DNA of 64,000 nt from Scenedesmus sp. ARA3 (lineage: Eukaryota; Chlorophyta; Chlorophyceae; Sphaeropleales; Scenedesmaceae), in contig RWJK01001821.1 in NCBI GenBank assembly GCA_004335835.1, positions 124,001 through 188,000 on the forward strand, written 5' to 3'. The notes beneath the pieces are model-generated. The model saw nothing but the letters and a program-made list of their open reading frames with translations. It was not told where the DNA came from and did not search any database. This document shows positions 10,104 to 43,809 of the stretch, piece by piece (position 1 is the first letter of the stretch; each line of letters begins with the position of its first letter). Made by a program: the position numbers and the translations under genes.

Positions 10104-12529
10104 TTACTCCCACTCAATGGTGCTGGGTGGCTTGCTGGTGATGTCATACACGACACGGTTGACGCTGCGTACCTGCGGGGCAGAGACAGAGAGGCACAGG
10201 ATGGATTCAGCATGCGGCAGCAACCTGAGTCTCAACCATCCATCCGCAAGCACAAGCTATGCAATCAACGCCATTGACTAGACCACATCCAGCAGGCATA
10301 TCTGTCACATGAAGTTCAAGTCAAGCTGTGACCACATCGAGCTGCAGCCAAACCCACCTGGTTGCAGATGCGCGCCGACACCGTGCGCAGGAATTGCAAG
10401 GTGTGGCCACATTACGCTGTACCCAAAACAGAAACATACTAGTCAAACCCTTCAACCCTCTGCGCACCTGGTTGCAGATGCGCGTCGACGCTGTGCGCAG
10501 GAACTCTGAAGTGTGCCCATGTTACGCTGTACCCAGAACATAAACATACTACCAAACCCTTCAACCCTCTGCGCACCTGGTTGCAGATGCGTGCCGACAC
10601 TGTGCGCAGGAACTCGGGTGTGAAGGGGTACCAGTCTGCGGTCATGCCGTCGCTGCTGCACACGGCGCGCAGGCCCACCACGTGGCTGTGTGTGCGCTGG
10701 TCTCCCTGCACGCCCACGCTCTTGATGGGCAGGAAGACTGCAAAGGCCTGCCAGATCTCGTCGTACAGCCCAAACTCCTTGATGGCGTTGATGTAGATCT
10801 CATCAACCATGCACAGCACCTGCAGGGGACAGGAGAGAGGGCAGCAGGCAGCACGGCAGCACGGCAGCGTCAGCGCCTGGCTACTCGTGCAACGCGCCAT
10901 TCCTGCTAAGCTGCTGTACTGGTGCTGCCTGCTTGTGCATGCACGCCGTCCTGCGAGGGAGGCTGGCATCCCAACCTGCGCATGCTGCAGTCAAAGTTTG
11001 CACAACAAAACAATCAGATTAGCCAGCCAGCCAGCCAGCCAGCTGCAGCAGGCCCTCACCTCCAGCCTGTCTCCCTCCGTGACGTCCCCCAGGATGCGCA
11101 CGCCCATGCCTGGCCCTGGGAAGGGGTGGCGCTTGATGAAGGTCTCAGGCACACCCAGCAGCCGCCCAATCGCACGCACCTGCAGCAGCGGCAGCACACG
11201 CCAGGATAACCAGCAGCAGCAGCAGCAGTTGGTGCAGGGCTCAGCCAAATCTGCAGTAGCACCTTCTTTTCAACTGACTCGCTGAACATATCTACGCATT
11301 GGCCAATGAACAACTTGACGCTCAGGTAGCTGCCACACCACTTACTACCAACGCTGCTGCTGCAGTCCAGCTGCTGCTGCTGCTGCCGCCTCACCTCGTC
11401 CTTGAAGAGCTCCCTGAAGGGCTCGATGAGGGAGAACTGCAGGTCCTTGGGCAGGCCTCCCACGTTGTGGTGGCTCTTGATGGTGTGGCTGTGCTTCTGG
11501 CCGCTGCCGGGAGGCGGGCAGCTCTCAATCACGTCAGGGTACAGCGTGCCCTGCAGCAGCAGCAGCAGCAGCAGCAAGGTCAGGTCACAACACCTGGCAC
11601 GATGCACGAGCAGGACAGCGCAATGAAACCAGAGGCAACACCTCGTTCTTCAATCGCCTTGCCTGCCTTTGTATTGGACGGCGACACCATCCACAACCCA
11701 TGTGTTACTTTGAAGTTACAAATATTGTTACACTTGTTGTTACAAATTCCTCGCGCACCTGCACCAGGAAGGTGGGCTTGTGGCCCAGCTCCTTCTCCAT
11801 GTTGTTGGCAAAGGCCTTGAAGACCTCAATGAACTCGGCCCCAATGATCTTGCGCTTGCGCTCGGGATCTGTTACCCCCTTGAGCTTGGCCAGCATCACG
11901 TCCTTGTGGTCCACCTTGGTCACGGGCAGGTGCAGGTGCTGCGTGAACATCTCCATCACGCGCTCACCCTCCTGCAGGCGGATGAGGACAGCGCACAGAC
12001 AGTTTGATGCAGGCAGAGGACGGCGAATGAGCGCAACTTGTGATAAAGCAAGAGAAAAGCTGCAGACGTGGAAGCAGGCGGCGTTGCTGCCAGCATGCCC
12101 AGCAGCAGCTGTCCAGTGTTGTCAAATGCCGCTGTGCAACAGCTGCCATTCAACACTGCATGCATTAATGCAAGCCATGCCTGCCTCATTGGCCGCTGCA
12201 GCCTGCACATTCCATCTCCGCAACAAAACATTGTTACAAACAACTTCCAGACAAACTAGTGACACCGCTGTCCCACTGGTTGCTGCGACCACACCACCAC
12301 ACAGCAGCAGCAGCAGCAGCACGGCACACCTTGTATCGCAGCAGGCCGTGGTCCACGAACACGCAGTGCAGCCGCTCGCCCAGCACCTTGTGCACCAGCG
12401 TGGCAGCCACGGTGCTGTCCACGCCGCCGCTCAGCGCACAGATGGCATGCTGCGTGGGGCCCACCTGCGGAAGAAGTGTGTCCAAGATGCGCAGCACGCA
12501 GCACAGCGGACGGTGTGAGGTGGCGCTTT

Positions 12530-12572
<43 letters not shown>

Positions 12573-14179
12573 TCGATCCTCCGCTACGGGCATTCCTGCA
12601 AGCCTAACACTCTACAACAATCTGCACTTACTACGCATCCCGCACGACTCGGCAACACACAGTAACAGCTGCGCACAGTGCTGCTCTGCGCTTCAGCAGA
12701 CACTCAGCATATGCTCAAGCGACGGTATGCACAGCAAGCGATGCATACCAATCCACAACCTCTGCTGCCCAGCACCGCCAAATACCCACCTGCTCTTTGA
12801 TGAGCTTGAGCTGCGTCTCCAGCACCTCGGCCATGCTCCAGTCTGCCGTCAGCCCCGCGATGTCCAGCAGGAAGTGGCGCAGCGTGCCTGTGCCCTGCTC
12901 GGTGTGCGCCACCTCGGGGTGGTACTGCAGCCCAAAGATGCGGCGCGCCTGGTCCTCAATGGCCACCACGGCGCCCTGGGAAGGGGGGGGGTAAATTGCA
13001 GCGGAAGCAGGTGGGGCTCAGCAACTTTGCATGCAGCAGATGAAGGAGTCCAAACAGCCAAGCTTGTGACTTCCAAAGCTGGTTGTTGTTGGTGGAGCAC
13101 TCCTGTGAGCGCCACGGCAAACCACACAGGCCCATTATTGGTGAGCCCTGCATGCACGCTCTGTTGCGCACTTCAACTCTGCACCCGCAGCACGCCAACA
13201 CAATGCAGCTGCTTCAGCCCAGTCACCGCCTGTGCCCACACAACAGTAACTCCACACGCTGCGCCAGCAGCTAGGGCTCCTACCGCTAACACCCCCTCTT
13301 CTTCCTTTCTTCCCTCGTCACCAGACCCTGCAACACAAGCACATCTCAACTTGACAACCTCATCAGCGCACCTGCTCGCTCTTGGCCACCACCTTGAAGC
13401 CCTCCGGCAGCTGCGTGGCCTCGTCCCCGTGGCTCATCCACACGTTGGGCTGCGTGTTGTCCTGGAAGCTGTAGAGGCGGCTGCCGGGCTGGATGAGGAT
13501 GGGCATGCGCCCGTACTCGCCACCCGCCACGCCGCTGCCCACCACGCCGCCCAGCATCTGCAACATGCGAGATACAAAAGCAAATGTGACATACAAACAA
13601 ACCAAGATAAAAGGTTGTTAGATGCGCAGCGAGGGGGGCGGTGAGTACATGTGCTGTTGGGTGTCATGAACCAGGCGCGTGTGCAGTGCAAAGTGACATG
13701 CAGCTGCGCTGAGGAACAGCAGCGCAGCATGCAACCAAGCTGAAGCTCCAACGTACAGCTGGCATTGTGCGGGGCTGACTGAGGCACATATGCACCTGCT
13801 GGCCCTCGCTGCCTGTTGCACCTCTACACGTCGCTGCTAGCAAAGCTGTTACCAGCAAACAACAAGCAGCGCTGGCACAAGCAACAGCGATGGCACAAGC
13901 CACTGCTAGCTCTGGATCTGGCTGTGCACGCGTGGCTCGACTGTGCACGGCTCCACGCTGCACCAACGCTGTTTCCATGTGTTAAATGTATGTATATCCT
14001 TGCGCCGCACCTGCACGATGAGCTGCATGCCGTAGCAGATGCCCAGCACCGGGATGCTGTTCTGCTGGCAGTAGCCAAAGAAGTCCTCGGGCACGCGCGG
14101 CGAGCCCTCCACGTGCACGCTGTTGGGCCCGCCCGACAGGATGACCACCTTGGGGTTCACGCTCTTGATGCGCTCCTGC

Positions 14180-14216
<37 letters not shown>

Positions 14217-15180
14217 TGTGAGCAGCAGCAGCAGCAGCAGCAGTTGTGAGCAGCAGTAGCATGGCAGTAGCAGGTGGGTGCGCAGGGGCATGTGTGTTGT
14301 TGGGCAGGCTGGGGCAAGGCAGCTGCTCTGTGGGCTTGCTGGTGCTGTGTGGCATACAAGTTGACAGCACTGGCTGTGTTATGTGTAATAAATAACGGGC
14401 AGCTGCTTTTGCACTGCATGTTTGTGTGCTAGTGTACGTGCAGCATATGGCTGGCGTCACCCCACAACCCATGCTATGTACGCAAGCATGATCGAGTTGT
14501 AGCAGAGGAACATGGCTCGTGCGCATGACTACCGCTTGCAAGCAATTTACTTGCATGTGTTGTGTTAATGCGCATGCAGCTTTACGGTCCCTTATAGCTA
14601 CAACTGAAGCCACAGCAAGGGTTGTACATACGGCCATGGCAACTGCTGCCAGTGCTGGCTGCTCCTAACCCGCAGTAGCAGCACAGTGCCTGCTGCAGCC
14701 CAGGCTGCACGACATGATGGTGTGAATCAGCATTGCTGTAGACATAACGTGCTGACAAGGCCCCCACGCTCCTGCTAGCCCTGATCAGGTTGGTGTCGGA
14801 CAGAGTCAGAAGGGCCAGTGCAGCAGGCACACAACACGTGCACAGTCCAGACTCACCATGGAGGCATCGCCAGGAAACATCATGGAGAAAACACCAATTT
14901 CACGGATGCGGCGGCAGATCAGCTGCGTATACTGCGAGCCATAGTCCAGGACCAGCACGCACTGATGGTCATCGTGCAGGGAGCTTGCTCCTGTCTTCTG
15001 CTTCTTTGATGCCGGAGCGTCTCCATTGGTGAAAACAGTGGTAGAATCGTTTGCCGACATGGCTGCAGCGCGAACTAGCTGTCGGTGTTGGCTGGCAGGC
15101 CTGCTTTTGAAGGCGAAGAGGGCGAGAGCAGCTCTGCCTGTGCTTGCCCTGATGCAACAACTACGAGCAGAGGACTGCAT
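10104..15180 (-). CDS. guaA: GMP synthase (glutamine-hydrolysing)
   Basis: Makes GMP from XMP, ATP and glutamine, the last step of guanylate synthesis. Ten exons, all joined by phase-0 introns: 15180-14857, 14175-14011, 13557-13372, 12975-12790, 12464-12330, 11971-11759, 11550-11395, 11179-11060, 10819-10577 and 10172-10104, giving 598 residues. The glutamine amidotransferase half carries the nucleophile Cys in GICYG (about C155) and the His/Glu pair in YHPE (about H244, E246). The synthetase half has the P-loop SGGVDST (about 299-305), [22 protein letters not shown] and the dimerisation-domain ending [10 protein letters not shown]. The first 40 residues are basic, Ser/Ala-rich and look like an organelle transit peptide; a second ATG at residue 41 (15060) could give a cytosolic form. 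The gene is divergent from the Clp-like gene. Its exon-9 donor has been triplicated (10353-10577). Confidence 0.95.
10353..10510 (-). repeat. Two intronic copies of the end of GMP synthase exon 9 with its donor site
   Basis: The last roughly 35 bases of exon 9, the junction and about 70 bases of intron recur twice downstream of the true donor, at a period of about 109-110 bp. The exon/intron boundary is at 10577 in the real exon, and its equivalents fall near 10468 and 10358. The protein requires the first (outermost) donor because the next exon continues [13 protein letters not shown]. Confidence 0.85.
11027..11046. repeat. Short (AGCC)n tract in a GMP synthase intron
   Basis: About five AGCC units lie close to the donor of exon 8. 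It is a simple repeat of no evident function. Confidence 0.7.
12531..12570. repeat. CAG/CTG microsatellite in the GMP synthase intron before exon 5
   Basis: About 13 CAG units on the plus strand, CTG in the gene's sense, lie some 65 bp upstream of the acceptor at 12465. A shorter run at 12303-12320 flanks the donor of exon 5. Confidence 0.9.
14182..14243. repeat. CAG/CTG microsatellite abutting the acceptor of GMP synthase exon 2
   Basis: Two runs of CAG (14182-14215 and 14222-14243, split by ttgtg) read as CTG in the sense strand. They end only a few bases before the AG at 14177-14176. The triplet tract therefore occupies the place of the polypyrimidine tract. Confidence 0.9.
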
Positions 15181-15577
15181 GTGCTCCTCTTACTGCCCGA
15201 GAACGGGAGGGGTGTGGGCCACCACTCTGCTGCCACGTTTCAGCCATAACAGTTATCAGGTGACTAACAGGCGAGGTTGAGGATCGGTCCGGTTGGTGAA
15301 CACGACGGGCGTTCAGTTACATAATCAGTCTGAGATTGTTGGTTGAGCCGTGTGCGTTGGCTGGTGCGCTTACGGACAAGTGTGACCCATCTTGAGTAGT
15401 GTGATGCGTTATGGCGAGTCCTGCAGCTTTTCAATCCTCGATCCAAGCTCAAGTACGCACTCACACAACTGTTAAATGAGGATTCAACGCACCTGGTCAT
15501 GTTGCTGATGTAATGTGTGGTGTACTGGCTCATGTCGCTGCTGCTGCTGCTGCTGCCACTACTTCACTCAAAATCTC
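15181..15577. promoter_or_regulatory. Divergent promoter region between GMP synthase and the Clp-like gene
   Basis: About 400 bp separate the GMP synthase start (15180, minus) from the first plausible ATG of the Clp-like gene (15578, plus). It must drive both genes. No defined element is visible; a short CTG run at 15539-15556 precedes the plus-strand ATG. Confidence 0.4.
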
Positions 15578-17283
15578 ATGCAGATAACACCAGCCCTGCT
15601 ATCAGCGTTATTCCGGTCAAACAGGCATACAGTATGCTTTTGGCGCAGCGCAGCTAGTGTCACCCAGCCTGGAGGGCATGGCAGGAGCAGTGCAGGCTAT
15701 GCCACCAGTGCAGCACCAGGAGAGCCTGGCGCACCTGCCAAGTAAGCAACACACCTGCAGCGAGGCAGTGACTGCGCTTGAAACGCCCAATTGAGCAGCA
15801 TGCACTGGCAGCCTGAAGCAATAGGCTGCTGTTTGTTGGGTTTGTGCACGTGTGCATGTGCAACACACTATGTACTGACCCCAGCAGACCCGCAGTGACA
15901 CACAGACTTGCAACAGAAGCAGCAACAGCAGCACGAGCAACAGCATGTGGGTTTTGTAAATACTTTGCTTCTTTGCATTGGCAGCTCATCAATGGCTGCT
16001 GTGCTCACCCAGCTGATGCCGCTGCTGATGCCACTGCTGCTGCCGCTGCTGCTGCTGCTGCATTGCCCTGGACATGCAGGAAGGACCGGAGCCGGCAGGT
16101 GACAGCCACCGGCATACTGCATGTCTGGTTGCATGCATATTTGCAGCGTGCTCAGCCATGCAAGCATCATTCAGCTGCCAGGCACGCAGCAGCCTCCTTC
16201 TGCTTCACTGCCACAAACAACACACAGCCCTGGCAGGCAAAGTGCTTACTCGCATAAGGTTAAGGCTAAGTTATGTCTGTCGTTTCCCCGTGACATGCGT
16301 GCTGTGCCTCTCAACAAACATTGTACCTGCGCCGCTTTGCTGACAAAACGGGTCACATATCAATCCCCTGGGCTGTTATGTATGTTGCTGCAGCTGTCAG
16401 CGCTGCAGCGCTATGGGCGTGACCTGACGGCAGAGGCGCGCCGCGGGCTGCTTGACCCTGTCATTGGCAGGCAGGATGTCATCCAGCGCACAATGCAGGT
16501 GCGACTACAGCAGCAGCAGGCGGCAGCAGGCGGCAGCAGGCGGCAGCAGCCCGGCAGCAGGCGGCAGTAGGCGGCAGCACCACAGGCGGTGCGGTGAATA
16601 GAGTGATGGCAGCTCCGGATTGACGCTGGCACGAGCGAATGCACATGTCAGGCCACCAGCAGCATCAGGCAGGCATTAGCAACGAATTGCTGGTGACAGC
16701 TGTGTCTTCTTGCAGCAGCAGCTGCTCTTGGAAACCTGCAGGGTGCCTCCCCTCAGCGCCACACAGCACCGTTTGATGGCAGCTGCTGCTGCTGCTGGCG
16801 GCGCAGGTGCTGCTGCGCCGCTCCAAGCACAACCCGCTGCTGGTGGGCGAGGCCGGGGTGGGCAAGACGGCCATCGTGGAGGGCATCGCGCAGATGATGG
16901 CGGGGCAGGCGCCACCACGCGGGTGAGCATGAAATAGAAAAGTCAACAGACCAGTGACAGCTGCAGCGTGTGTTATCCCAGCGGGGCTGGTGCAGCGTTG
17001 AGCGAAGGTGCATTGATGCATTGCGCAGCTCATGGCAAGGCCGGCGTCACCGCGGGGTGAGCAAAAAATTAGCAGACGTTTTCAGCTGCAATGTGTGGCG
17101 CTGGTGGGCGTGGCTGGGTGTTGTAGAGGGCATTGCACAGATGATGGCGGGGCAGGCGCCACCACGGGGGTGAGCGGCTTTTGACGTTAGCAACCTGCAC
17201 CCACCCGGTGCTCTGCAGCCTGGCTGAGCAGCACGCCAGCCCTGGTGCAGCCTGCCCACCTTCACTTCTCCGTCTGTTGCACC

Positions 17284-17314
<31 letters not shown>

Positions 17315-17392
17315 AAGGCTGGCGAGCAAGCGCCTGATTGCGCTGGATGTGGGCAGCGTTGTGGCTGGCACCATCTACCACGGCGAGTTCAA

Positions 17393-17434
<42 letters not shown>

Positions 17435-17526
17435 ACGTAGCCCTTACGAGGCTGCATGTATCATACACACGCACCTGTCAAGTCCCCTGACCTCGCTGCT
17501 GCCGCTGCTGCTGCTGCTGCTGCTGC

Positions 17527-17568
<42 letters not shown>

Positions 17569-20161
17569 GCTTCAGGCTGGCCAACAAGCGCCTGATTGCG
17601 CTGGACGTGGGCAGCGTGGTGGCTGGCACCAGCTACCGCGGCGAGTTTGAGGAGCGGCTGCAGGCGCTGCTGCAGGACTGCGAGGCGGCTGGCGGCAGCG
17701 TGGTGCTGTTCATTGATGAGATACACGTGCTGGGTGAGGGCTGTTGACCAAAACTTGTTAGGAGAGACATATATGCTTTTGAGGCCGTGTTGCGGCCGGG
17801 TGGCGGCGTGGTGCTTTTCATTGATGAGATCCACGTGCTGGGTGAGGGTTGTGTTGTTTATGCATGTGCTGTTTTTAGGGTGGGATGGAATGGGGTGCGG
17901 GCATGTCAATTGGGGTGGCAGCTTGGTGCTGTTCATTGACGAGATCCACGTGCCGGGTGAGCAAAGCACATAACAGTCAGCCCTGTAACAGTACTACTGC
18001 AAATGACTAGTAGTAATTTACGTGCTGGGTGAGCTAAACACATAACAGTCAGCCCTGTAACAGTACTACTGCGGATGACTAGTAGTGATCCACGTGCTGG
18101 GAAGGGGGAGGGCAAGGGGCGGGGGCTGGGGTGGCTGCAGTGTGTGGTGATGTTCAATAACGAGAACCACATGCTGTGTCAGAGTTCAGGATGCGCACTT
18201 TTCATGCATTGGACATCATTGGCAAGAACAGGCGGTGTTGATCAGACTATAATTCATCACATGGTCGCATGCTTCGTCATGATTATTCTGCCGCCGCAGG
18301 GGTTGCGGGCAACAGCGAGGGCGGGCTGGACTTTGCCGCTCTCTCCAAAATCATATCACAACACCTTCTGATATAATCACATTGACTGCTGCAGTGGGTG
18401 TGGGCAACAGCAAGGACAGGATGGACTTTGCCTCTTCCGTCAACTCTGATTGTCTAAAACCCATTTGTGACATTGTCATACGCCGCCGCAGTGGGTGCGG
18501 GCAACAGCGAGGGCGGGCTGGACTTTGCCGCTCTCTCCAAACTTTTGAAATAACAATGGTTGTTACAACTTTTTCTTGGCCACTGCAGTGGGTGCGGGCA
18601 ACAGCGAGGGCGGGCTGGACTTTGCCAACATGCTCAAGCCGGCGCTGGCGCGCAGCGCGCTGCAGGTCATTGGGGCCACCACCACGGACGAGTTCCGGCA
18701 GCACATCGAGCCAGACCCCGCGCTCAACCGCAGGTTCCAGGTGGGTGGAAAGCCCAGCACTGATCGGCAGCTGCACCAGCTGCTGTGGTGCATGCAGAGG
18801 CTGTGCTGTGGTCAATGCGCAGTAGCTGGGTGGCTTATTGGCGCGCTAGCTGGCTGGCTGGCTGGCTGGCAGCACATCGAGCCAGGCCCTGCGCTCAACC
18901 GCAGGTTCCAGGTGCTGTGCTGGCTCAATCACTTAATGGCTGACTTCAGTTCATGGTTTTACCTCCTCACCCACCCCCGCAGCCCATCTTGGTGGAGGAG
19001 CCCTCCCCCAGGAGGGCCTGGCGCTGCTATCGCCCCGCACTGGCACCCCTTCAACCACTGATTTCAGTTTCTGGGTGTTTATGCTGCTCTGATTCACCCC
19101 CGCAGCCCATCCTGGTGGAGGAGCCCTCTCCGCAGGAATGCCTGGCTCTGCTGGCACACCTTGCACTGGCACTCTTAGGCCACTAACTTTACTTTTTTGC
19201 CTTCCTGTTTGCCTGTGTGTTCATCCTCTCTAATTCACGCCTGCAGCCCATCCTGGTTGAGGAGCCCTCCCCGCAGGAGTGCCTGGCACTGCTGGCAGAC
19301 CTTGCACTGGCACTCTTTGGCCACTAACTTCAACTTATGTCTTACTGTTTGCCTGGGTGTTCATTCTCTCTAATTCACCGCCGCAGCCCATCCTGGTGGA
19401 GGAGCCCTCCCCTGAGGAGTGCCTGGCACTGCTGGCAGACCTTGCACTGGCACTCTTTGGCCACTAACTTCAACTTATGTCTTACTGTTTGCCTGGGTGT
19501 TCATTCTCTCTAATTCACCGCCGCAGCCCATCCTGGTGGAGGAGCCCTCCCCTGAGGAGTGCCTGGCACTGCTGCAGGGCCTGGCGCCACGCTACGAGGC
19601 CTTCCACACGGTGGCGCTGAGCCAGGGGGCGCTGGCGGCAGCAGTGGCGGCAGCACAGAGGTGCGGCGCAGTCAGGCGTGCAGGGCGGCACAGTGCGGCG
19701 TGAAGCAGGGACCAGGCAGCAGCAGCAGCAAGAGCGCTCTGGGAGGGGTCAAATGTAGCGTGCACTGTGCTGCTTGTTTCTTCAACGCTGTTGTCCATAG
19801 CCAGGGGGCATTGGCGGCAGCAGTGGCGGCGGCGCAGAGGTGCGGCGCAAAGCGCGGCGTGGAGTGGCACATCAAAGACAGCAGCAGGAGGGAGGGGCGC
19901 TGTGAGAGGGGCCGCTTGCAGTGCGTGCAGTGTGCTGCTTGTTTTGTCGGACGCTGCTGTGCAAAGCAGCTGCTTGTGGTTTGAGCTGCCTACATCTGGC
20001 ACTGACAGGATGCAGACGACAGCCAAGCTTGCTGAAGGTACTGTATCTCCACGTGGATGCTCCCTGGCAGGTACATCCCTGAGCGCCGCCTGCCTGACTC
20101 AGCCATAGACTTGCTGGACGAGGCAGCAGCAAAGGTGCGCCTGGCAGCAGTCAACCCACAT

Positions 20162-20211
<50 letters not shown>

Positions 20212-20546
20212 ACATGGAGGATATGGCAGCCGTGGTGCAGGCAGCAGCAGCGGTGCAGCTGGTGTTGCAGCTGAAGGCGACAGCCGCGGCGGCAGCAGCT
20301 TTTTGAGCAGCTTTTTTGGTGATACCACCACTAGTACAAGCAGCGTCAGCAGCAGCAGTAACGCCAGCAGGAATACATCTGAAAGCAGCCACAGCAGTGC
20401 AGCCCAGACATTGCAGCAGCAGCAGGAAAGGGAGAGTAGCAGCTCCACCAGTTTAGGTGGGTTTTCTGCTGAAGTTGAGCTAGCCCTGGCTGGCACAGCC
20501 GATGGAGCTGCTGCTGCTGCACCAAACCCTCCACCTGCAACAGCAC

Positions 20547-20640
<94 letters not shown>

Positions 20641-21215
20641 TAATCTGGGTGTAGGCCTGTTGCCGCAGCAGCAGCAGCAGCAAGCGCACTTGCTCAACAG
20701 CGCAACCTCCCCATCATCGTTATCATCAGCAGCAGCGTCCATCGGGCCTCCTGCTGCTGCTGCTGCTGCTGGCGGCCGTGGTCAGCCGCAGCGCTGGTCT
20801 GACTGGGTGACTGCGCGCGGCTGGCGTGGTGAGGCTGAGGTGCAGCGGCAGCAGCTGCTGGAGTGGTTTGGGGCCTCGCCCGCGCAGCCGCTCAAGGGCG
20901 TGGCAGGTGCGGGTGGTGGGCTTAATGGTGGGCTGGTTGGCGGCTGTTTGATCGCATGGTCGAGTTGCTGGCTGGCTGGTGCATGGTGATGCAGCTGTCG
21001 CACTGGGGTTAAGGCTGCTTCTTCAGTGCTAGCATGCGTGTTGTCCCTGCCGGCAAACTGCATGGTTTCCCTGAGACAATAAGGCTGAATGCAATGATGC
21101 AACCTGCTTGTGTGCACTGTGTGTGCAGGCCACAGGCAGACCACCCACGAGCGGCGCATGAAGCATGCACAGCTCTTCGGCAGCCCAGGCGTTGGTGCTG
21201 CTGCAGTCAGCCCAG

Positions 21216-21246
<31 letters not shown>

Positions 21247-21582: not shown

Positions 21583-21614
<32 letters not shown>

Positions 21615-23368
21615 GGGGGCTGAGCGCCTCGCGGCAGCAGCGCTCGTCTGTGGACGATGCTCAGGCTGCTGCTGCAGTGGCGAGCGCTTCTGCCACTGTG
21701 TTTGCGGCTGGGCCTGACAAGAGGGCTGCTGTGGCAGTGCATCAGAAGGAGCGGCAGCCAGCAGCAGCAGCAGCAGCAGCAACAGAGGCAGATAGAAGTC
21801 AAGAGCCTTACGGCAGTGCAGCAGATGCGGGCAGCAGCGGCTGGAATGCAGACTGGGGCATAAAAGGCAGTGTCTCGCAAGCAGCAGCAGCAGCAGCAGC
21901 CACGGCTCCACCTCTGGCAAGACACAAAGCATCGTTATCATCTTCATCATTAGAAGCAGCAGCAGCAGCGGACACTGGGCAGCTGGTAGTGACAGCTCAG
22001 CACATTCTGGAGGTCGTTGCAGAGGCAACCGGCATCCCCCGCTCGCTGCTAACAGGCATACCAACAGACACAGCTAGCACATCTGTCACCAGCCCGACCT
22101 TCTCCGGCACTGCACAAGCAGCAGCCCTGCATGAGCTATCATCTATCCAAGCTGCCCTCACAGCAGCAGTACTAGGCCAGGACGCTGCTGCTGCTGCTGT
22201 CATTGGTGCGCTGCGGCTGTCCCGCCTGGGGCTGCAGCACACCAGCAGCCCTCCGCTGCAGCCACTCTCAACAGGTGCGCTAGCACCAGCAAGCGCCACA
22301 CTACAGCAGCAGCAGCAGCAGCAGCAGCAGGCGAGGTTGTCGCTGAGCCTGCTGCTGTCAGGGCCGAGTGGTGTGGGCAAGAGCAGCATGGCGCGGCTGC
22401 TGGGTGAGTGCCTGCTGCCTGGCGAGCCTGCTGCGCTGCTGCACCTGAGCTGCGGGGAGCTGTCTGAGCGGCACAGCATCAGCAGGCTGGTGGGGGCGCC
22501 CCCGGGGTATGTAGGTGAGTGTTTACAGTGAGCCATGCAGCCGCCACACTACTCAGGTGTTTGGTACGTGTGGCAGATCTTTCCTCATTCTCTCAACCTG
22601 GTGGCGGGGCCGCCACACTACTCAGGCGTTTGATTGGCGCGTCAACCGCTGAGACAGGACATTTACATGGAGGTCCTTGCACCGCCTAAGGCAACATGAG
22701 CTGCTGCGCCACGGTGATTGATCTGAAGCTGTGTAGCGTTGTGCTGCTGCTGCTGCTGCTGCTGCTGCTTCGTTGTGCAGGCTACGGCAAGGGAGGGCTG
22801 CTGACGGAGGCCATACGGCGCCGCCCCCACAGCGTGGTGGTGTTTGATGACGTGGAGCGGGCACACCCTGACGTGGTGGGGCTGCTGCTGCAGGTGCGGC
22901 GGCTGAAGGCATTATCCAATAACATGGTTGAAGTGCTACTGCTGTTTAGTTGTGTGCGTATTTGCTGCGAAGCTGCTGCGTGGTGTATTGGCGCTGCACG
23001 CTGCAGCCTGTGGTTTGCGCAAAACACAATGGACAGCTGTCCTGTAGATTACAGCTGTCGCACCGGTGCGCTTGCGCCGCGCAGCGTGGTGGTGTTTGAT
23101 GACGTGGAGCGGGCACACCCTGATGTGGTGGGGCTGCTGCTGCAGGTGCGGCGGCTGAAGGAAATGGGTGCAGTGCTACTGCTGTTAGCTGTGGGCATGT
23201 CCGTGGCGAAGCGCCTTGCGTGCAGCGCCCTGCTGTCGTGTTGGTGCGCTTGCGCTGTGCAGTGTTCTGGCTGGTCATTTCCAGATACCAGCAGCTAGCC
23301 GCTCCCCTTGATGACATGCGACATGTAGCAGATCTCATTCTCATCTGCTGATGTGAACTTGCCGCTGC

Positions 23369-23416
<48 letters not shown>

Positions 23417-25619: not shown

Positions 25620-28600
25620 CTACTGCCTGAAGATGCGTGTCAGCTGCTGCAGTGCTGAGCTGAAGCTGTCTGCCAGGGTGCGCTCCTCGTCTTCCACCTG
25701 CTTCTCAACCTGCAGGAAGCGAGGCAAGCAGGCAGGGGGCAGCCAAGCAGGTAGGTGAGGAGGCAGGTGAGCAGGCGTGCGTGCGTGAGTGCGTGCGCAG
25801 GGCGCTCAGCACAAGTCGGCAGGAGTACGGTACGACAGATAGAAAGCTACCAAGCTACCAAGCCACACTACCCCGCCGCACTACCAAGCCCCCCCTGAAT
25901 GCCACGCCACCCACCTTTGCCAGCAGTTTTTCTGCTGCCCTGATCTCCTCCCGTATCTCCTTGCGCACCGCCTCCTCCTCTGCCGTCAGCTCCTGCTCCA
26001 GCTTCTGCTCAAGCACCGTGAAGCCCTTGCCAAAGGAGGTCAGGCCTTGCTCCAAATCCTTTTCAAGCACGCCAGCCTCCTTTTCGAGGCCCTTTTCGAG
26101 CACGCCTGCCTCGTCCTCAATCTCCTGCAAGGCATGGCATGGCACAGAGTGTGTTTTTGCAAGGCGTGATGTGTGGGCTAGGAGTGTGTGGGTGCTGCGT
26201 GCCTGTTGCAATAGCATGTAGTGGTCTGAGGTGGGGCGTACATGGAGGTTGCAGGGACTAAACAGCAGCAAGATATGGCTTGTAACGGCAGTGGCAAGGA
26301 CTGCTTGGTTGGTGCAGCTGCGCACAACAGCACTTGCACACGCACACCAACATCACATCCAACCCATGCCAACTGACATACCACCTTGCGTTGAAAGGAA
26401 CCTCAACATGAAACAGCTCCTCCTAAAAAAGCAGCTGGCACTGACACACACCCCACACTCACACACCTGCACCAGGCTCTTAGCTGGCGGGTGCGGCTTG
26501 CAGCTGTTGTCTGTGACTGTGAAGTCGCTCCACTTGAAGCCAACCTTCTCCACAGCAGCAGTCAGCTCAGGAATCAACTCCTGCAAGAGACGATTATGCA
26601 GGCAGGCAGGCGATAGGCAGGTGAGCAGACAGTCAAGGCAAAGGGGTGAGCAGACGGATCAAGATCAACACCAAAAGCACTTCTACAGCAGCTGCAGCTG
26701 TTGCCAAAGCAAAACCCCAGGCTTCGCTGGCGACTTGCTCGTCACCAGCAAGCAAGTCCTCATACAAAGTAGCACAATGTTAGGGGCAGCCAAGGGCTTT
26801 GTGCTAGTGACCGTGCCGCACCTCTGGCAGCTGGCGCTCGCGTGTGTAGATGGTGGCCCCTCCGTAGCCGTCCCAGGCGTCGTTGGTGCCCTTGTAGTAG
26901 ATCACCACGTAGCTGTCAGGCTTGCTGGCCAGGATGTACCTGCGGTTTAAAGGTGACAGAGCGCGAGGCAGAACGTTTGGTGACAAGGCGCGGATGAATG
27001 GCGTTCATGGTGTCCCTGGAGGAGATGGCCTACAGCTGCCAGGCTTGCTGGCCAGTAACTGCAAGGCAAACACGTTAAGCCATAAGCACTGTGGGGTGCG
27101 TCCCCTGCTGTGATGCAAGAGCATGGCAGGCACATGAACCCATCAGCAGTCAGCTACCCTGCACCTCTGCAAGGCTGCAAATGCTCACAGCTGTGTCAAT
27201 ATCACAATGCGCTGAGCTTGTCGCCACTCTGCTGCCCTGCCCAGCGACTGGACAATGCAGCGCAACTTGTTCAGACTCCAAATGCCAGGGCACTTCTTGC
27301 AAACCACCAGTTGACCAGTCAAAGCCAGTCAAACATTGTCAAACTTGGCAACTCCAAAACAGCCATATCAATTTGCACTTTGGGCTGCACGTGCTCACCA
27401 GTCGTCCTGGTAGTGCAGGTACTCATTGCCGTGATTGTACAGGATGCTGTTCTTGTCCTTGTCCTGCACAAACGTCTGCAATGGCACAGCACAAACCATG
27501 CGCACAAAGACAGGCAGCGGGGCGTGAGCGGTGAGGCGCTGACACAGGGCTGTTGGTGATGCGCTTACAGGTGTGACTGCAACGGCATCCGGATGCTCCA
27601 ACAGCCCTGAGCGCGACATAGATGTTGTGCTCATGCAACAGCCACAAACAACTGGTTTGTGCTTGACGCATGGTGGTGTGGCCAGCGTTTATGCAGAAGC
27701 AGCGGCACTAATGCTTGCAGACTGCAGCCATCATGCCACTGTTGCACGCTGTGTGCAGCAGCGCAGATCACAGCCCTTGCTGACCTGTGGTAAGCCTGAC
27801 AGCAAACAGACACACATCGCCCTTGCAGGATGCAGGGCGCACTCCTTCTGCCTTCAACTCCCGCCTTCAAACACTTGAAGTATGCTCACCTGGATGGTGC
27901 TGCGCTCGATGAAGTCTCCATTGGGCTTGTTGATGCGCCAGTTGATCTTGGCCACCAGCCTCCCGGGCTCCGGCACAGCAAAGAAGTGCTCCTGCAAGCA
28001 GAACAACAGACAGACAGGCCCAGAGGCACAAATAACAAAACCTGCCATTTACAAGCACATCGCGAGCTGCACACACAGCAGCACGCATTCACAGACCACA
28101 TCAACTCTACCTCCTACAGTCGCACATCCGCACCTGGCAGTCGAAGATGTCAAAGAGCGGGTTCTGTCCCGCCGTGATGTACCAGCGTCCCTGGAACATG
28201 TTGATGTCAAAGCCCTCATCCAGCGCACAGTCCCCCGGGACGGGGTACAGTCCCTCGTCCTGGCGCTGCGGGACACACTTCTGGTCGCTGACCGCGCACG
28301 CATTGAAGGTGTCAATGGCCTTGTCACCATACAGGTCGCCGCACCTGTGATGTTTTTCAACATAGGCATGGCGGCGGTGCATGTTTACGGTGTGTCGGTT
28401 GCTGCACTGCATGTATGTGCACAGCGTGCCGTATATTGATTGCCTTATCGCCGTACAGGTCGCCGCACCTGGCATGGTACAGAAGGCAGTGTTATGATCA
28501 GGTAATGATGTCCACAGGCAGATAGTGTCGTGGCAGGCAGTGCCTTGACAAGCAGTCAAGGGGCCTACATATACATAGCATTTGAGTACTGCGTAGTTGT

Positions 28601-29923: not shown

Positions 29924-32900
29924 CTTACATAAAAGAATAGTTTGGGTTTCGGCGTGACTTAATCAAAACCAATTAGTGACCTTTGCCGCCTTGCCAATGT
30001 ACTGCGAACGGTCCTCAAAGGTGATCCGAGATCACTGGCAAATCTTGCAACGAATACGTCCGATACCAATGCATCGAGTGCTTTGACAAATGCTCAACGC
30101 TACTGTGGACGTCTTGAGAGGGGAAACAGCCCCAGTCAAGGCAAGACCCCAAAGTATCGAACACCGTGTCCACACCAGCAAGCGAGTTGACCAGGCCAGG
30201 GGTATGTGACACCGTCAGAAAGTCTCGGTGCCACCAGCACACGACCGTTTGAATCTCGGACTTCATTGTTGGACAGGCGGATCAGTTGGTGCAGAAGGTT
30301 ACCAGTCAGGCAGTACCAGTGCTGGCCATTGCAGTGCATGTGCCATGCTTGGCCAGCCTGGATCCGAAGCATAGCAGCTGATGTACGCCACAACAAGCAG
30401 CAACCACCCCCAAGGACATACCAATTTTTGACATGTCATGAGTTTCACACCTCAGCCGTCAACACAACTTAAGCTAGCCTCACAACCAGTGCACGCAATA
30501 CAGCCAGGTCATCTGCATACCGCAGTGCTGTGACAGCTGTGGACAGGACAAAGTCATACCGCGCCTAATCAGACTGCTGCTGCTGCTGCAAGTACCTGTG
30601 CACAGGCAAGGTAGTCACAGCGCACGCCAGCAGCTGCATGCACCCTGTGCAATGCACCCCCACACCTGCACACACACCTCAACACCCAGATCAGTGTCAT
30701 CTCACATCAAGCACCACTCCAAATGTCAACATCTACAATGCTGTCCAAGTAGAGCGTCAATCAGGCTGATTGGGCGTCAAGCTAGTATCACGCAGCAGCA
30801 GGCAGGAGATTCAGTCTCATGCACTCTGCACGAAGAAGACGCCAGGCAATGCAGGTGTGTGGCAGCTCAATGCCGCATGTGCAACATGGCTGAAGCCTGC
30901 TGCAGCAGCTGATCGTATATCCACAAAAAACGCAACACAGTTTTGTGGTTGAGGCCCTACAGCAGCACACGCAGGACAATGGCAGTGCGAACAAAAACAG
31001 CCCTGCTCGTGCCAAACAACTGCACACAGACGTAACAACGGTTTGCAATCCGGTCCACACTCAACAATGACGGTTCATACGCCCAACGCACAGGCTGCCA
31101 CATGCCGTTCAACCGTTACGGCTGACTCACAACATCACAAACAGTACAGCATTGCCAGATAATGGCATGAGCACGAAACTGCACACTGCCTTCACTGCCG
31201 CAACACACACGTGCTACAAGCCACCATGGCGAAAAGCAAGATCAACCACAAACCTCGACACGCCGCGTATGCAAAATGCCCTCTGGGGCACAGCAGCACT
31301 AGACAGAAGTACACAACTAAACCAGAGACGCCATCAACCCTAAAGCGTGGCCAGCAGCAAGCACCAGCTGCTGCCAATCACAAACAGAGCATGCCACCTT
31401 ACCGCCTACACAGCCCTACGGAGTGCAAAATGTGTTGTGATGATACCGTGTGATGGTGCATACATGAGCTGCTATCCCTGACCACGTTGAACCAGGTCAA
31501 ACATGCACACGTTGACTTGGTCAAACCAACACTAGGCAAGTTTGACCAGACGAGTTGAAGCTATATGCGCTTTACTGCCAACGGTGCGCAGGACACACCC
31601 ATACCTCCAAAACAACCCCAAAAGCAAAACAAAACTCGGCCTATAAACTGACCTAGATCCCGTGACAAGCACGACATGCCGAGCGCCGCACATGCTTGGA
31701 CCACTGCATCGGTTGCGCACAAGCTCAGGCAACATGTCAACACGCCACAAGCCCCACCCCAGCTCTAGCATTCAAACAGTGCAAACATCACAACGCTGAC
31801 AGCCAGGCCGAGATGACCGCGACATTACACAGCAACCGCGCGAGGCAGCAGGAGATGATGCGCCAATGCATGCAAGCTGCAGCACAATGCTGAAGGCAGT
31901 TTGCTGACACTGCAACAGCGCTGGAGCGGCAGGAGGGCTCAGCTGAGTTGACCTCCTGCAGACCGCTGTACCACCACACAGTAGTGCAGGAGCTCAAAGT
32001 GCAGTCAAAATCCAAATGCCATCCAAGCTACAAGGCCCGTGTGCAGTCAACGCCTGGTCAACGGCATCATAACCAAGATCAGTTGACTGGCAGATTGCAC
32101 CGTGTTGAGCTGCCCTCTCCTGTGATATGCTCTCTGCTGTCGCGTCAGATGTCGCGCAGGCATACACAGATGTGTGCCGCACCAGCAATCGACTAGTGCT
32201 ATGGTGGACCCAACAGCAATACGTCAAAGTCAACAGCAGCGCTGACATAAGCAGCAGGTACAAACATCCACGACTGCGTCCAAACTCACGCAAGTGCTGC
32301 GATTCGCATCGGCCATTTGAACAGCTGTAACATTCTAGCACATTGTGCACCCCAGCCCTGTATGCGCCAGGCAACTCAGCCAACAGACAATCCACCTTTG
32401 GCAACTGTTCATACCTCAACATTCCAGCCATTTGAATGATGGCAGCCAACAGCGCGCAATGTGTCGAACTCTGATCCCGCAAGAATGGTGCAGGTGGGCA
32501 GTTGGCCTGCCTAATGCCGTCACGCATAGATCTACCCCGCTCTCAACAGATCTTGCGGGCTAAGCGCCACACGCAACTGCGCCCGTCAATGCAACCTAAC
32601 GTTATAACTAGTTAAAACTCATCCCAGGTGCAGACATCAGGCTAGCTAGTAGACCTGCATGACGTAGCACCAACAGCGCAACTCCTGCCGCCCAATCCCG
32701 CGCAAGCACACCTCAAGCATCAACGTCCCCTTTGTCTATCCCTGCATCCCCGCACAGCTGAAGCCTGAAGCATACCAGGCACATCTGCATCCGCATCTTG
32801 GCAGCGGGCACACGCTACCAGCCGCTCTCGCAATACCCAAAGGCATATGCAACACCCACCGCCCCTGCGCCTGCCACCCTGCCATGGACCACCCACAAGT

Positions 32901-33520
32901 GCATAAACTGGACATCTGCCGCCTCCAAACATACAAACAGCCCTAGGGCTACCATATGCAGCCCCACATGCAGCCCCAGCCACCTTGCCAAAAGTGCGGC
33001 GCCCGTCCCCTGATCTGACGTGCCTATGATGCACCTCAGTGCCAGCGCCTTGGCGCCTGTGCAAGCATACGTTCCTGCTGCGCACGCCAGCAGCTGCCCC
33101 GGCACAATAGCCAGCGGCAACTGCTGCGCCGAGATGCGCACCACTACACAACACAATGTGTGCTGCACTGGTCACGCCACTTCCTAGCCCTGTAGCCCAG
33201 CAGCAAACCTACCACACCAATGTGGCTGCTACCAGCCCATCACCTAGCCACACATATCTCTCAAGCCCGCCAACCAAGTCTATGTGACCTGGCCACCAGA
33301 ACACCCATAACGCACCATGCCCTTCCCTTCCCACGGCAGCAGCAGCAGCAGCAAATCTGCTACGCTACCGCAAGCGCATCCCTGCAGCCTATCCTGCAAC
33401 ATCATCATCTCCTTCCGACCACGGCAGCAGCAGCAGCAGCAGCAGATCTGCTACGCCAGCGCAAACACATCCCTGCCGCCCACCCCACCTCACCACCACC
33501 AAACAACGCCGCAATACCCA
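29924..33520. other. 3.6 kb without a supported gene
   Basis: It lies upstream of VDE and downstream of the MIOX-like stop. Minus-strand frames at 30136-30396 (RLSNNEVRDSNGRVLVAPRL region) and 30015-30266 look weakly protein-like but match no family I recognise. The rest, 30500-33300, is CA-rich with only short frames. No repeat or RNA gene is evident. Confidence 0.4.
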
Positions 33521-36500
33521 TCACCAGAACAGCTTCTCCTCCCCGAGGTACCGCGCAATCAGCTCATCATAGTACTGCACCAGCCGCTCCCCCTGCAGCG
33601 CCTCAGGAGGCAGTACAACCCTGCGGTATGCCGTCAGGCTCTGGAACGCCGCCAGCAGCGGCAGCAGCGCCTTATCCGCCTCACTCATCAGGTGGCGGTA
33701 CGCGCCGCCAGGCTTGGTGATGGCAGCGCAGCGCTGGTAGCGCAGCATGAAGAGGGCTTCTTCTGGGAGTTGTGTTTGATTGAGGACTAGCGCCATGTAT
33801 AGGTACTCGGGCGCGCCCCACGACATGTACACGTTGCGCAGGCCGCAGCCGGGCGTGTAGATGCCAAGAGGGGTGGAGAGGCTGCGACGGCGCCTGCAAG
33901 ATTTGCAGTAGGATGCAGGGCAGTGGCGTGTGTGTGAAGGTGGTGTGTAACAGCAGAAATGGAAGGGCGTGTGAATGGTCAGCGGCGTGGACAGGGCGCA
34001 GTAGCGCCTGCGGTGATGTGCAGTGCGTAGGCGGAGCAGAGTGGATCAGCATGCGGTGAAGTGTGCGTGCATGTGTCTGGGTGGGCGTCCACCGAGCTGC
34101 TGCAAGCGACGAGCCCTACGCATCAGCCGGCAGGTCTACTGCAGCCCATGCCCTGTCCGCAACATACACTAAATCACTTCCGTACACTACATCAAAAATA
34201 ACAAGGACTTTCAAATGAGAGCCTGAGGCCAGGTCTCTAATGCTGCGGGCCGGCGCTGCTCCCCGCCCTACTACGCACTATGCACTCAGTCTGGGTTGGC
34301 ATGGGTTGGCGCTGAAAACATCAGTTGAAAACAAACAACACACACATGTAACAGAATTGCCTGTGCTGCCGCACCTGTCCGGGTTGGCGGAGAAGAACTC
34401 GCTGTGGCTGATCTGCGGCGCAAACTTGCAGCCCACCGGGTAGCTCTCGCCAGCCACCGCCCACTGCGGCTGCCCGCCCCAGCCTGGGTGTGCCAGCAGC
34501 TTGCCCAGGCCGTGCAGCAGGCCCGCCAGCGCCATCCACGGCTTGTCGGGGAAGGACAGCCTGCACAGCTCCGCCACCTGGCCACAGCGGCAGCACATAC
34601 GTACACACATATGTTTAGGCACGGTGAACACTATGGTTAGGCATGGTGAGTGTTGTGCGCAGCAGGCCCGCCAGCGCCATCCACGGCTTGTTCGGGAGGG
34701 ACAGCCGGCACAGCTCCGCCACCTGGCCACAGCGGCAGCACATACGCGTACACATACACATGGTCAGGCACGCTAAACAACGATGATTAGGAGTAGTGGG
34801 TGTTGTTGGGCGCAGCAGGCCCGGCAGCAGATGGGTGTGGCACCAGCGCATAGGCGTGCTCGCGCTGCGCGAGTGACCACCATGCAGTCACATATCATCT
34901 GCACCACATACTGCACGTAGCGCTGGAGCACCGCAGGCGCTACAAAAACATATGTTAGCCAACCGCTGGCTACCTTCAGCCGGCCCCACCTGCAGCGCAT
35001 GCTCCTTCAGAGGCATGTCAGGCGTCAGCGGCTCCTCACTGATGCTGCCCTGAGACACCAGCGGCGCGCCAAAGCACCCCAGCTGCTGCTGCTGCTGCTG
35101 CTGGCCTGCTGCATCTGCCGCGCCGCCGCCGCCGCTGCTGCTGCGCACGCTGCTGCTGCCAGCCAGCAGCACTGCCTCATATTCACGCATTGAGTTCAGC
35201 AGGTCCAGAGCCTCCCACACCCCGAGCTCAGCCCTGTCCAGCTCAGCAAACAGCTGCGCCTGGCGCTTCGCATAGTCCAGGGTCTGGCGCGCGCGGTTCA
35301 GCCGCACAAACAGCTCGTACGCCGCGCCGCTGCTGCCGCTGCCGGCGCCGCGGCGCGCGTAGAAGCTGGCATTACCCGCGCCCCTGCTGCTGATGCTGCT
35401 CACGCTGCTCGCGATGCTGCTCGCTGACATGAGGCTGATCGCGCCGGCTGCTGCACCCTGCTGCTGCTGGTGTGCTGCAGTGAGCGACAGTGCGCCTGTG
35501 TCGGCGCCTATGGCACTGTCAGCGATGCTGGACAGCCCGCTCCGGCCACCTGACAGCTGCTTGAGGTATGCTGCCTCATCCTCATCATCCTCCTCTTCCT
35601 CCACTTCCAGCACCACCACAACCTGATCCTGCTGCTCTGTGTGACGCTGCGCCTGCGCCTGCTGCTGCTGCCTGTGTGAGACGCCTGCTGCTGTCGCAGC
35701 TGTCGCCACAGCATGCTCCCTGTCCTGCGGTGCCGCCGCTCCTGCTGCCGCATCCCGCTTTTGCGCTTCTTGCCCCTCCTGCTGCTGGCCGCCAACTGCA
35801 TGCCGCAACCTGCTCTCAACCTGAGCGGCGCCCTTGCGCGCAAGCTCGTGCTGCTGCTGCTCCGTCAACCCCAGCCTGCTGCCATGGTGCTTGCTGTGGT
35901 AGTGCCCCTGCTGCGACAGCCTGCCGCTGCTGCCGCCAGCTGCACCTCCACCCATCCCTGCTAGCTGCTCTGTGGAGTTCCGCACACTCTGCAGCGCCAG
36001 CGCCCCATCTACTTCCAGCCCGTACGACTGCTGCCCGTACTGCCTGTTGTACTGCTCGCTGTCCTCAGCCGCATCTGCAGTACCCAGCGCATCATTGCCG
36101 CCAATGTACCCGCCAATGTTCGTGCTGCCAGGCAGGCCGTGGTCTAACGCCACGCTCGCGCCGCTGCTGCTACTGCTGCTGCTGCTGCTGCTGCTGCTCG
36201 CGCGCCTGCTGCCGTCCGTCTCACTGATGCTGCTGCGGCTGAGCAGCATGTGCGGGAACGGCGCAGCAGCAGCAGCATGATGCGCTGCACCATCACTCAC
36301 AAGGCTGCTGCCGCTGCCTTTGCTGCTGCCCCTGGCATGACCCAGATCAGCTAGCCCCACCACAGGGCCACTGCTGTCTGCCTGCGCCACATGTTCTGGC
36401 AGCGGCAGAAGCAGATCTAGGCCTGAGGGGTGCTGCTGCCGCAGCAGCGCGTGGCCAGGCTGTGCATTCCAACCACTGCCGGCCCTGTTGACCTGCAGCG

Positions 36501-41784: not shown

Positions 41785-41788
<4 letters not shown>
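41751..41788 (+). repeat. Inverted copy of part of the PSMG1 last exon
   Basis: The plus strand here reads like the sense (minus) strand of 42165-42128, coding ADPSQEFLA. About 27 bases match with one difference, then the match decays. It overlaps the PSMG1 stop region in opposite orientation, so the transcript could fold back on itself. Confidence 0.8.

Positions 41789-43809
<2,021 letters not shown>

What the first reader, a model, noticed from the sequence alone, without database searches (positions are those of the whole stretch)
10353..34735. Introns across several genes carry ladders of tandem copies of the neighbouring exon's edge and splice site
In at least four unrelated genes (GMP synthase, Clp-like, VDE, MIOX-like), 30-80 bp of exon end plus the splice junction recur in the adjacent intron one to five times. 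The geometry is consistent: donor-edge copies are always downstream of the real exon and acceptor-edge copies always upstream. The protein families require the outermost donor and the innermost acceptor, while each intron carries competing, often intact, decoy splice sites. It looks like a recurrent local duplication process acting at splice junctions. Such duplication is a proposed route of intron gain and growth, and a source of alternative splicing. I know of no description of this systematic pattern in this kind of genome.
Basis: partly seen in the sequence, partly recalled or inferred. Interest (0 to 1): 0.9.

Follow-up and report, generated by a model that had tools for sequence, protein, structure and literature searches.

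The report
Exon-edge copies laddered into algal introns
In the green alga Tetradesmus obliquus about one intron in ten of those sampled carries one to five direct, slowly decaying copies of the neighbouring exon's last or first ~47 bases together with its splice site, the apparent trace of a recurrent local duplication at splice junctions that lengthens introns and fills them with look-alike splice sites.

Summary
In 294 kb (window plus 25 fetched regions) I curated 46 ladders with 75 decoy copies; 40 of 422 predicted introns carry one. Copies are direct (96 of 691 exon-edge probes; inverted 0 of 691). They peak at the exon edge and are rare in intergenic DNA (30/294 and 28/283 against 3/688). 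Unselected local repeats span a junction in 61 of 74 clusters, against 35.5 expected. GMP synthase and ClpB proteins need the outermost donor and innermost acceptor. That geometry follows from any tandem-type copy that must leave the protein intact, so it is no mystery. Decoys look neutral. Plain tandem duplication does not explain that donor copies usually stop ~8 bp into the intron: intron-side similarity is seen in 36% of pairs, ~80% simulated. I favour recurrent direct duplication anchored at splice junctions, amplification of edge plus spacer, then neutral decay; gene conversion is the main rival. It fits intron growth. I found no sign of intron gain or of selected decoys. RNA and related genomes could not be tested.

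The parts
10577..10615 (-). GMP synthase: real donor edge (last 39 bp of exon 10577-10819; donor GTGCGC at 10576-10571)
   Evidence: protein P0001 crosses this junction
10468..10506 (-). GMP synthase donor-edge decoy 1, 109 bp into the intron, donor GT intact
10358..10393 (-). GMP synthase donor-edge decoy 2, 219 bp into the intron, donor GT intact; sequence after it unlike the spacers
16879..16928 (+). ClpB-like: real donor edge 1 (exon ends 16922)
   Evidence: ClpB alignment
17018..17063 (+). ClpB donor-edge 1 decoy, decayed middle copy
   Evidence: score 56, z 9.1, none of 300 shuffles reached it
17126..17175 (+). ClpB donor-edge 1 decoy (junction after 17169)
17318..17415 (+). ClpB acceptor-edge 1 decoy (limits approximate, GCT-rich; real exon starts 17576); not in the curated 46
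17691..17738 (+). ClpB real donor edge 2 (exon ends 17733)
17799..17852 (+). ClpB donor-edge 2 decoy 1 (junction after 17841)
17914..17961 (+). ClpB donor-edge 2 decoy 2 (junction after 17956); a 72-bp tandem unit 17944-18101 repeats its donor again
18300..18337 (+). ClpB acceptor-edge 2 decoy 1
18395..18432 (+). ClpB acceptor-edge 2 decoy 2
18492..18529 (+). ClpB acceptor-edge 2 decoy 3 (exon part identical to the real exon over 38 bp)
18589..18626 (+). ClpB real acceptor edge 2 (exon starts 18589)
18697..18743 (+). ClpB real donor edge 3 (exon ends 18740)
18868..18914 (+). ClpB donor-edge 3 decoy (junction after 18911)
18983..19434 (+). ClpB acceptor-edge 3 ladder: decoys starting at 18983, 19106, 19247, 19387
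19527..19574 (+). ClpB real acceptor edge 3 (exon starts 19527)
19799..19845 (+). ClpB donor-edge 4 copy (real edge 19620-19666, exon ends 19660); not in the curated 46
23082..23161 (+). ClpB donor-edge 5 decoy (junction after 23145; real edge 22830-22909, exon ends 22893)
28436..28468 (-). VDE acceptor-edge copy, 124 bp upstream of the presumed real edge 28312-28344; not in the curated 46
34514..34568 (-). MIOX-like: real acceptor edge (exon 34375-34568)
34659..34713 (-). MIOX-like acceptor-edge decoy, 145 bp upstream; its intron side is also copied

Best explanation
Short direct duplications arise again and again at exon-intron junctions of T. obliquus. Each leaves a copy of ~47 bp of exon edge plus the splice site, mostly about 60-95 bp inside the intron (E X E). 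The unit of edge plus spacer (~123 bp) then multiplies by ordinary tandem expansion. Only alleles whose outermost donor or innermost acceptor still gives the old reading frame survive, so copies lie on the intron side. The decoys are spliced out, drift neutrally, and decay by substitutions and indels, so introns lengthen. Shown here: copies, orientation, side, spacing, junction-centred profile, homology of spacers within ladders, neutral pattern of decoy change, junction use in two proteins. Inferred: time order, the tandem step, the survival filter. Unknown: why the seed ends at the splice site; a break or template switch favoured at the exon-intron boundary, perhaps transcription- or splicing-linked, is my guess.
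For: Exon-edge probes have intron-ward copies in 30/294 (donor) and 28/283 (acceptor), against 3/688 intergenic, 6/333 intron +5..+45, 14-16/529 exon interior. Unselected local repeats: 61 of 74 clusters span a junction, 35.5 expected. 24-mer profile: donors 12.0% at -12, 11.5% at -24, 7.7% at the junction, 2.9% at +12, 0.8% at +24. Direct 96, inverted 0, reversed 0 of 691. 60 of 75 spacings are 80-175 bp (median 123) and 13 are 215-275; in 6 of those 13 a decayed middle copy is found at p<0.02, four of them strong. Spacers inside one ladder are homologous in 28 of 33 pairs. Decoy-decoy differences by codon position are .156/.123/.164, 1.6-1.9 times the real-decoy .084/.079 at positions 1 and 2 (third .169): decoys drift without coding constraint. 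GT is kept in 34/37 and AG in 32/38 decoys, near the ~84% that this divergence predicts (my arithmetic). Distance real-decoy modulo 3 is flat, 26/27/22. Protein use: GMP synthase, ClpB. Ladder introns are longer.
Against: Plain tandem duplication should leave spacer and distal intron homologous, but only 16 of 58 such pairs are, and simulation predicts intron-side similarity in 78-82% of pairs against 36% seen; so the seed step is not an ordinary tandem duplication and its mechanism is a guess. Random placement alone would make about half of the repeat clusters span a junction, and 13 of 74 do not. Acceptor copies extend further into the intron than donor copies, and some ladders do look like plain tandem duplication (L011 2845, MIOX). 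In one ladder (window 18300-18589) spacers of nearly equal length are barely alignable (p 0.40-0.45) while decoys stay close, as conversion would give. Gene models are self-trained, without RNA, and decoys called as exons blur the counts.
Confidence: 0.5

Rival explanations
1. Old tandem duplications whose exon-edge parts are kept alike by gene conversion from the real exon, while spacers drift apart.
For: Exon parts stay 86-89% alike while intron parts fall to 61-63%, unrelated introns giving 51%. Some spacers have nearly equal length but barely align (window 18300). 13 of 23 informative site pairs are incompatible with one tree (eight ladders, little power).
Against: Decoy-decoy difference is 1.6-1.9 times real-decoy at codon positions 1 and 2, close to the factor 2 of independent drift. 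In 28 alignable pairs spacers and decoys of one ladder diverge at broadly similar rates: 0.18 against 0.126 substitutions per site, with decoys chosen for similarity. Conversion would also be expected to homogenise young flanks (reasoning).
Confidence: 0.22
2. Random short tandem duplications everywhere in genes; mainly junction-spanning ones stay recognisable because one copy is protected by coding selection.
For: Explains geometry, direct orientation and the ladders with copied intron part (16 of 58 pairs). Random placement already makes 35.5 of 74 clusters span a junction.
Against: 61 of 74 observed, beyond all 1000 random shifts. Simulation with the same detection rule predicts intron-side similarity in 78-82% of pairs; 36% observed. 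Intron +5..+45 probes 6/333 against donor edge 30/294. Intergenic 3/688.
Confidence: 0.13
3. Decoys are kept by selection as regulated or competing splice sites.
For: Most decoys keep GT or AG (34/37, 32/38).
Against: That is near the neutral expectation at this divergence; codon positions are about equal between decoys and distances ignore the frame.
Confidence: 0.05
4. A mobile element (introner) or templated insertion by polymerase theta.
For: Edge-spacer-edge looks like an insertion with a long target repeat.
Against: The one spacer stretch searched alone, 17735-18290, has no other match in the genome apart from its own exon edge (the tool warns that it skips simple repeats and common words). 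The larger query 16780-19700 matched elsewhere mainly through GCT and CTGG runs and exon paralogues. No inverted copies in 691 probes, whereas templated insertions are expected in both orientations (recalled). Spacers of different ladders look unrelated on average (174 pairs, identity 0.47).
Confidence: 0.05
5. Assembly artefact, for example joining two haplotypes at shared exons.
For: Draft assembly of 1567 contigs; one ladder holds a run of N (L026).
Against: Alleles would differ mainly at third codon positions; real-decoy differences at positions 1 and 2 are half as frequent as at position 3, and decoy-decoy ones are about uniform. Some decoys carry indels. No second full-length copy of the ClpB region was listed.
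Confidence: 0.05

Closest known systems
[quoted passage not shown] Drosophila, PMC2891723; passages of both read)
   Same: Direct local duplication of exon sequence with splice signals next to splice sites.
   Different: Here the copies lie inside an existing intron, carry one splice site only, repeat up to five times at ~123 bp, and make no new intron that I can see. The potato paper mentions an 83-bp duplication inside an intron that did not change the gene structure.
Small tandem duplications from repair of breaks with complementary overhangs (CST/Pol alpha, PMC8355091, passages read; paired nicks in plants, Schiml 2016, recalled)
   Same: Direct orientation, tens of bases copied.
   Different: There the two copies lie side by side (my understanding); here most pairs are separated by a 60-95 bp spacer that I could not trace to either side, and they sit at splice junctions.
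Introners / introner-like elements (PMC9860276, search listing only)
   Same: A recurrent process that reshapes introns genome-wide.
   Different: No dispersed element found; each ladder copies its own exon edge.
Minisatellites in introns
   Same: Tandem units of edge plus spacer, regular period inside a ladder.
   Different: The unit is anchored on the splice junction and starts or ends in the coding exon.

Membership tests
[quoted passage not shown]
   Decoys look one-sided: AG near the far edge of donor decoys 16/37 (control shifts 8-19), GT near the far edge of acceptor decoys 4/38 (control shifts 2-16); they lie inside one intron
[quoted passage not shown]
   no related algal DNA at hand; a VDE search of viral and prokaryote collections found none
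Break-repair small tandem duplication | direct orientation only | tested here: met
   96 direct, 0 inverted of 691 exon-edge probes
Break-repair small tandem duplication | copies adjacent, whole unit duplicated | tested here: not met
   spacer homologous to the sequence after the last decoy in only 16 of 58 pairs; met in some ladders (L011 2845, MIOX)
Break-repair small tandem duplication | dependence on end-joining factors | not testable with these tools
   needs mutants
Introner | many dispersed similar copies | tested here: not met
   one donor-ladder stretch, 17735-18290, has no match in the genome away from its own gene (with the tool's caveat on simple repeats); spacers of different ladders 47% alike in 174 pairs
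Templated insertion by Pol theta | copies in both orientations | tested here: not met
   0 inverted of 691; the expectation of both orientations is recalled
Functional alternative splice sites | constraint on decoy splice dinucleotides | tested here: not met
   34/37 GT, 32/38 AG, near the ~84% expected from neutral divergence
Functional alternative splice sites | use in RNA | not testable with these tools
   no reads held

The most novel reading that the evidence does not exclude
A mutational process directed at splice junctions: the cell's handling of the exon-intron boundary (nascent RNA, R-loop, bound splicing factors, or a repair template made from pre-mRNA) makes ~55-nt exon-edge-plus-splice-site segments the preferred thing to be copied, in direct orientation, ~120 bp into the neighbouring intron, over and over across the genome.
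Probability: 0.27. Interest if true: 0.92.

Novelty: new variant of a known kind. Interest (0 to 1): 0.74.

Why it matters
It gives a genome in which the birth and decay of local duplications at splice junctions can be read at many stages, in about one sampled intron in ten. That makes testable how introns lengthen, how tolerant splicing is of near-perfect competing sites with the same exon context, and whether mutation is aimed at exon-intron boundaries. In a published comparison T. obliquus has a mean intron of 462 bp against 230-302 bp in three other Sphaeropleales (PMC5966456, table passage read); ladders are one plausible cause, untested. It also warns annotators: my own gene finder called several decoys exons.

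Tried and rejected
Codon-level function of decoys, functional splice decoys, dispersed elements, inverted templated insertion and haplotype misjoins: see rivals. I asked whether donor decoys are whole exons with an acceptor at their far edge: no excess. I asked whether the spacer is copied from exon sequence beyond the edge or is a reverse complement: few (of 45 ladders, local z>4 in 13 against the distal intron, 6 against the exon side, 3 and 1 against their reverse complements), so for most I found no source nearby. I looked for the VDE gene in viral and prokaryote collections: none. Family searches of the own genome with PF00004 and PF00504 show by eye two more likely repeats of one query stretch about 150-165 bp apart, but profiles are too blunt for 15-residue decoys, and only the best candidates were scored.

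Curation: 46 of 74 automatic families were kept. The 28 dropped are second readings of kept ladders, locus-edge cases (L007), low-complexity or protein repeats (L018, window 17327, window minus 15768, two in L019 that I did not print), and ladders broken by N or unclear (L011 323, L015 4233/4271, L023 4785, L026 2550, L026 7161-8032). Low-complexity probes and probes with N were left out of the probe counts.

Literature: ten searches (one search found nothing) listed no title or abstract start that describes exon-edge ladders. The library lacks most subscription papers. Passages only were read of PMC2891723, PMC8226300, PMC4974935, PMC5966456 and PMC8355091; no paper was read whole.
Full report
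WHAT THE WINDOW IS. The window is G000:C1411:124001-188000 of an 87.3-Mb, 1567-contig assembly. The GMP synthase it encodes is listed as 100% identical over the whole query to a Tetradesmus obliquus protein (P0001; one residue differs, a rounded value). The source contigs of P0001 reach at most 2638 bp for a 558-aa protein, while the gene spans about 4 kb or more in the window, so that record looks spliced (inference). It crosses the ladder-bearing junction with the outermost donor.

GENE MODELS. I wrote and self-trained a hidden Markov gene finder. On 294,046 unambiguous bases (window plus L003-L027) it gives 882 junctions, median exon 118 and intron 220 bp, with 60.5 kb intergenic, 109 kb coding and 124 kb intron. 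It has no RNA support and calls some decoys exons. The sample is not random: eight of the 25 regions come from the window's own contig.

THE OBSERVATION. In the window: GMP synthase donor (two decoys), five donor and three acceptor junctions of a ClpB-like gene, a VDE acceptor and a MIOX acceptor. Elsewhere the same is seen in genes whose edited predicted products match Pfam models for an AAA ATPase, a protein kinase, a tRNA-ligase anticodon-binding domain, an alpha/beta hydrolase, a Myb-like domain, a chlorophyll a/b-binding protein and an ABC transporter. A joined ClpB piece using outermost donors and innermost acceptors over four introns, with seven of the eight ladder edges, aligns to ClpB 4hse_A with a single one-residue gap, not at a junction.

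STATISTICS. Local BLAST repeats (direct, within 800 bp, 26 sources) form 74 clusters; in 61 the best pair spans a predicted junction, against 35.5 (SD 4.0, maximum 49) in 1000 random shifts; for matches of 90 bp or less 26 of 35 against 10.4 (SD 2.8, maximum 19 of 500); five inverted local pairs of any kind were seen. Labels are helped by decoys called as exons. 40-mer probes: donor edge, copies downstream 30 and upstream 15 of 294; acceptor edge, upstream 28 and downstream 9 of 283; exon interior 16 and 14 of 529; intron interior 25 and 29 of 839; intron +5..+45, 8 and 6 of 333; intron -60..-20, 14 and 10 of 336; intergenic 3 and 3 of 688 (up and down). Inverted copies of these probes: none at exon edges, exon interior, intron interior or intron 5' end, one each near the intron 3' end and intergenic. 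Fisher values are; the weakest is donor down against up, p 0.029; probes are not independent. 24-mer profile (junctions with exon and intron of at least 60 bp): donor copies intron-ward 12.0% at -12, 11.5% at -24, 4.5% at -48, 0.6% at -108, 7.7% at the junction, 2.9% at +12, 0.8% at +24. Acceptors 8.5-8.9% at -12 and -24, 5.4% at the junction, then 4.8, 4.3, 3.8, 2.7, 1.3% at +12 to +60. Exon-ward copies 0.4-5.6%. Direct 96, inverted 0, reversed-control 0 of 691 probes; intergenic 24-mers 6 of 1512 in one direction.

ANATOMY. 46 curated ladders (27 donor, 19 acceptor) hold 75 decoys. Exon part median 47 bp (donor) and 46 bp (acceptor); intron part median 8 and 6 bp (quartiles 6-12 and 4-27). 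60 of 75 spacings are 80-175 bp (median 123, SD 19); 13 are 215-275 bp, and in 6 of those 13 a decayed copy lies in the middle at p<0.02 (four with z above 9). Many decoys of one ladder share their boundary. Ladders occur in 40 of 422 introns; those introns have median 413.5 bp against 214.5 bp (p 5e-10), and ladders cluster by gene (41 ladders in 51 genes with three or more introns, permutation p 0.0056). By plain extrapolation the genome would hold some 10,000 ladders or more; that is a guess from a non-random sample.

WHAT THE DECOYS DO. Real-decoy differences per codon position are 73/868, 69/868, 147/870; decoy-decoy 80/512, 63/512, 84/513. Decoys therefore drift without coding constraint, each by about 0.08 per site, while the real exon changes mainly at third positions (inference). 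GT is intact in 34 of 37 donor decoys and AG in 32 of 38 acceptor decoys; at that divergence about 84% would be expected. Distances modulo 3 are 26/27/22. Nothing here points to selected use.

WHY IT IS NOT JUST RANDOM TANDEM DUPLICATION. Exon parts are 88.7% alike between real and decoy (75 pairs) and 85.8% between decoys (44 pairs), while intron parts are 63.1% and 61.2%; unrelated introns give 51%. Ladders were found by their exon parts, so I simulated whole-unit duplication with neutral decay under the same detection rule: intron parts above 0.62 identity in 78-82% of pairs for all nine settings, 36% observed. Spacers within a ladder are homologous in 28 of 33 pairs, but spacer against the sequence beyond the last decoy in only 16 of 58 (11 of 35 ladders by my count; Fisher 2e-7). 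A local comparison over 350 bp finds 13 of 45 ladders, some through simple repeats. So the usual form is E(XE)n: the first event leaves edge-spacer-edge, then edge plus spacer multiplies. Where spacers align (28 of 32 pairs, p below 0.36) they differ by 0.18 per site with 3.6 gaps per 100, decoy exon parts by 0.126 with 0.58 gaps; the second figure is lowered by how decoys were found.

WHAT REMAINS OPEN. Why the copied piece ends at the splice site; whether spacer or distal intron is ancestral; whether conversion helps keep edges alike (13 of 23 site pairs incompatible with a tree, weak). No related DNA, no RNA and no reads were available. The spacer stretch 17735-18290 has no match in the genome away from its own gene (simple repeats skipped by the tool), which argues against a mobile element.

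COMPARISON WITH PRINT. Tandem duplication as a route to intron gain is known (PMC2891723 and PMC4974935, passages read), and small tandem duplications arise at breaks with overhangs (PMC8355091, passages read). T. obliquus is listed with mean intron length 462 bp and 7.8 introns per gene (PMC5966456, table passage read). None of the ten searches listed a title or abstract start that describes exon-edge ladders. I therefore call it a new variant of a known kind, with a seed step that may be new.

Noticed in passing
window 33336-33480 (minus, downstream of the MIOX stop): A 54-bp direct repeat 91 bp apart; the gene finder puts a doubtful exon there, and I read it as lying outside a real exon edge.
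   Followed up: partly
window 46601-47091: Period 48/144 repeat in a cysteine-rich, probably coding stretch that the gene finder left intergenic.
   Followed up: no
window 4294-4405 and 8242-8352: 112-bp direct repeat, 96% identical, 3.9 kb apart.
   Followed up: no
window 41750-41785 and 42131-42166: 36-bp inverted repeat, 92% identical, within one predicted gene.
   Followed up: no
whole window, e.g. 20548-20639, 43177-43283, 49562-49724: Very many CAG/GCT triplet runs, read as poly-Gln, poly-Ala, poly-Leu or poly-Ser in predicted exons and also in introns.
   Followed up: no
L019:3434-9194: Long repeat arrays with 78-bp spacing, proline-rich and apparently coding in part.
   Followed up: no
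L012:5414-5704: Short-unit minisatellite in an intron, unrelated to an exon edge.
   Followed up: no
L026, minus-strand positions 7207-7297: A ladder interrupted by a run of N: repeat ladders may have hampered the assembly.
   Followed up: no
L023, plus strand, after position 5446: After the last decoy some 40 unrelated bases seem to precede a stretch like the spacer (by eye; local score): large intron indels can hide homology.
   Followed up: partly
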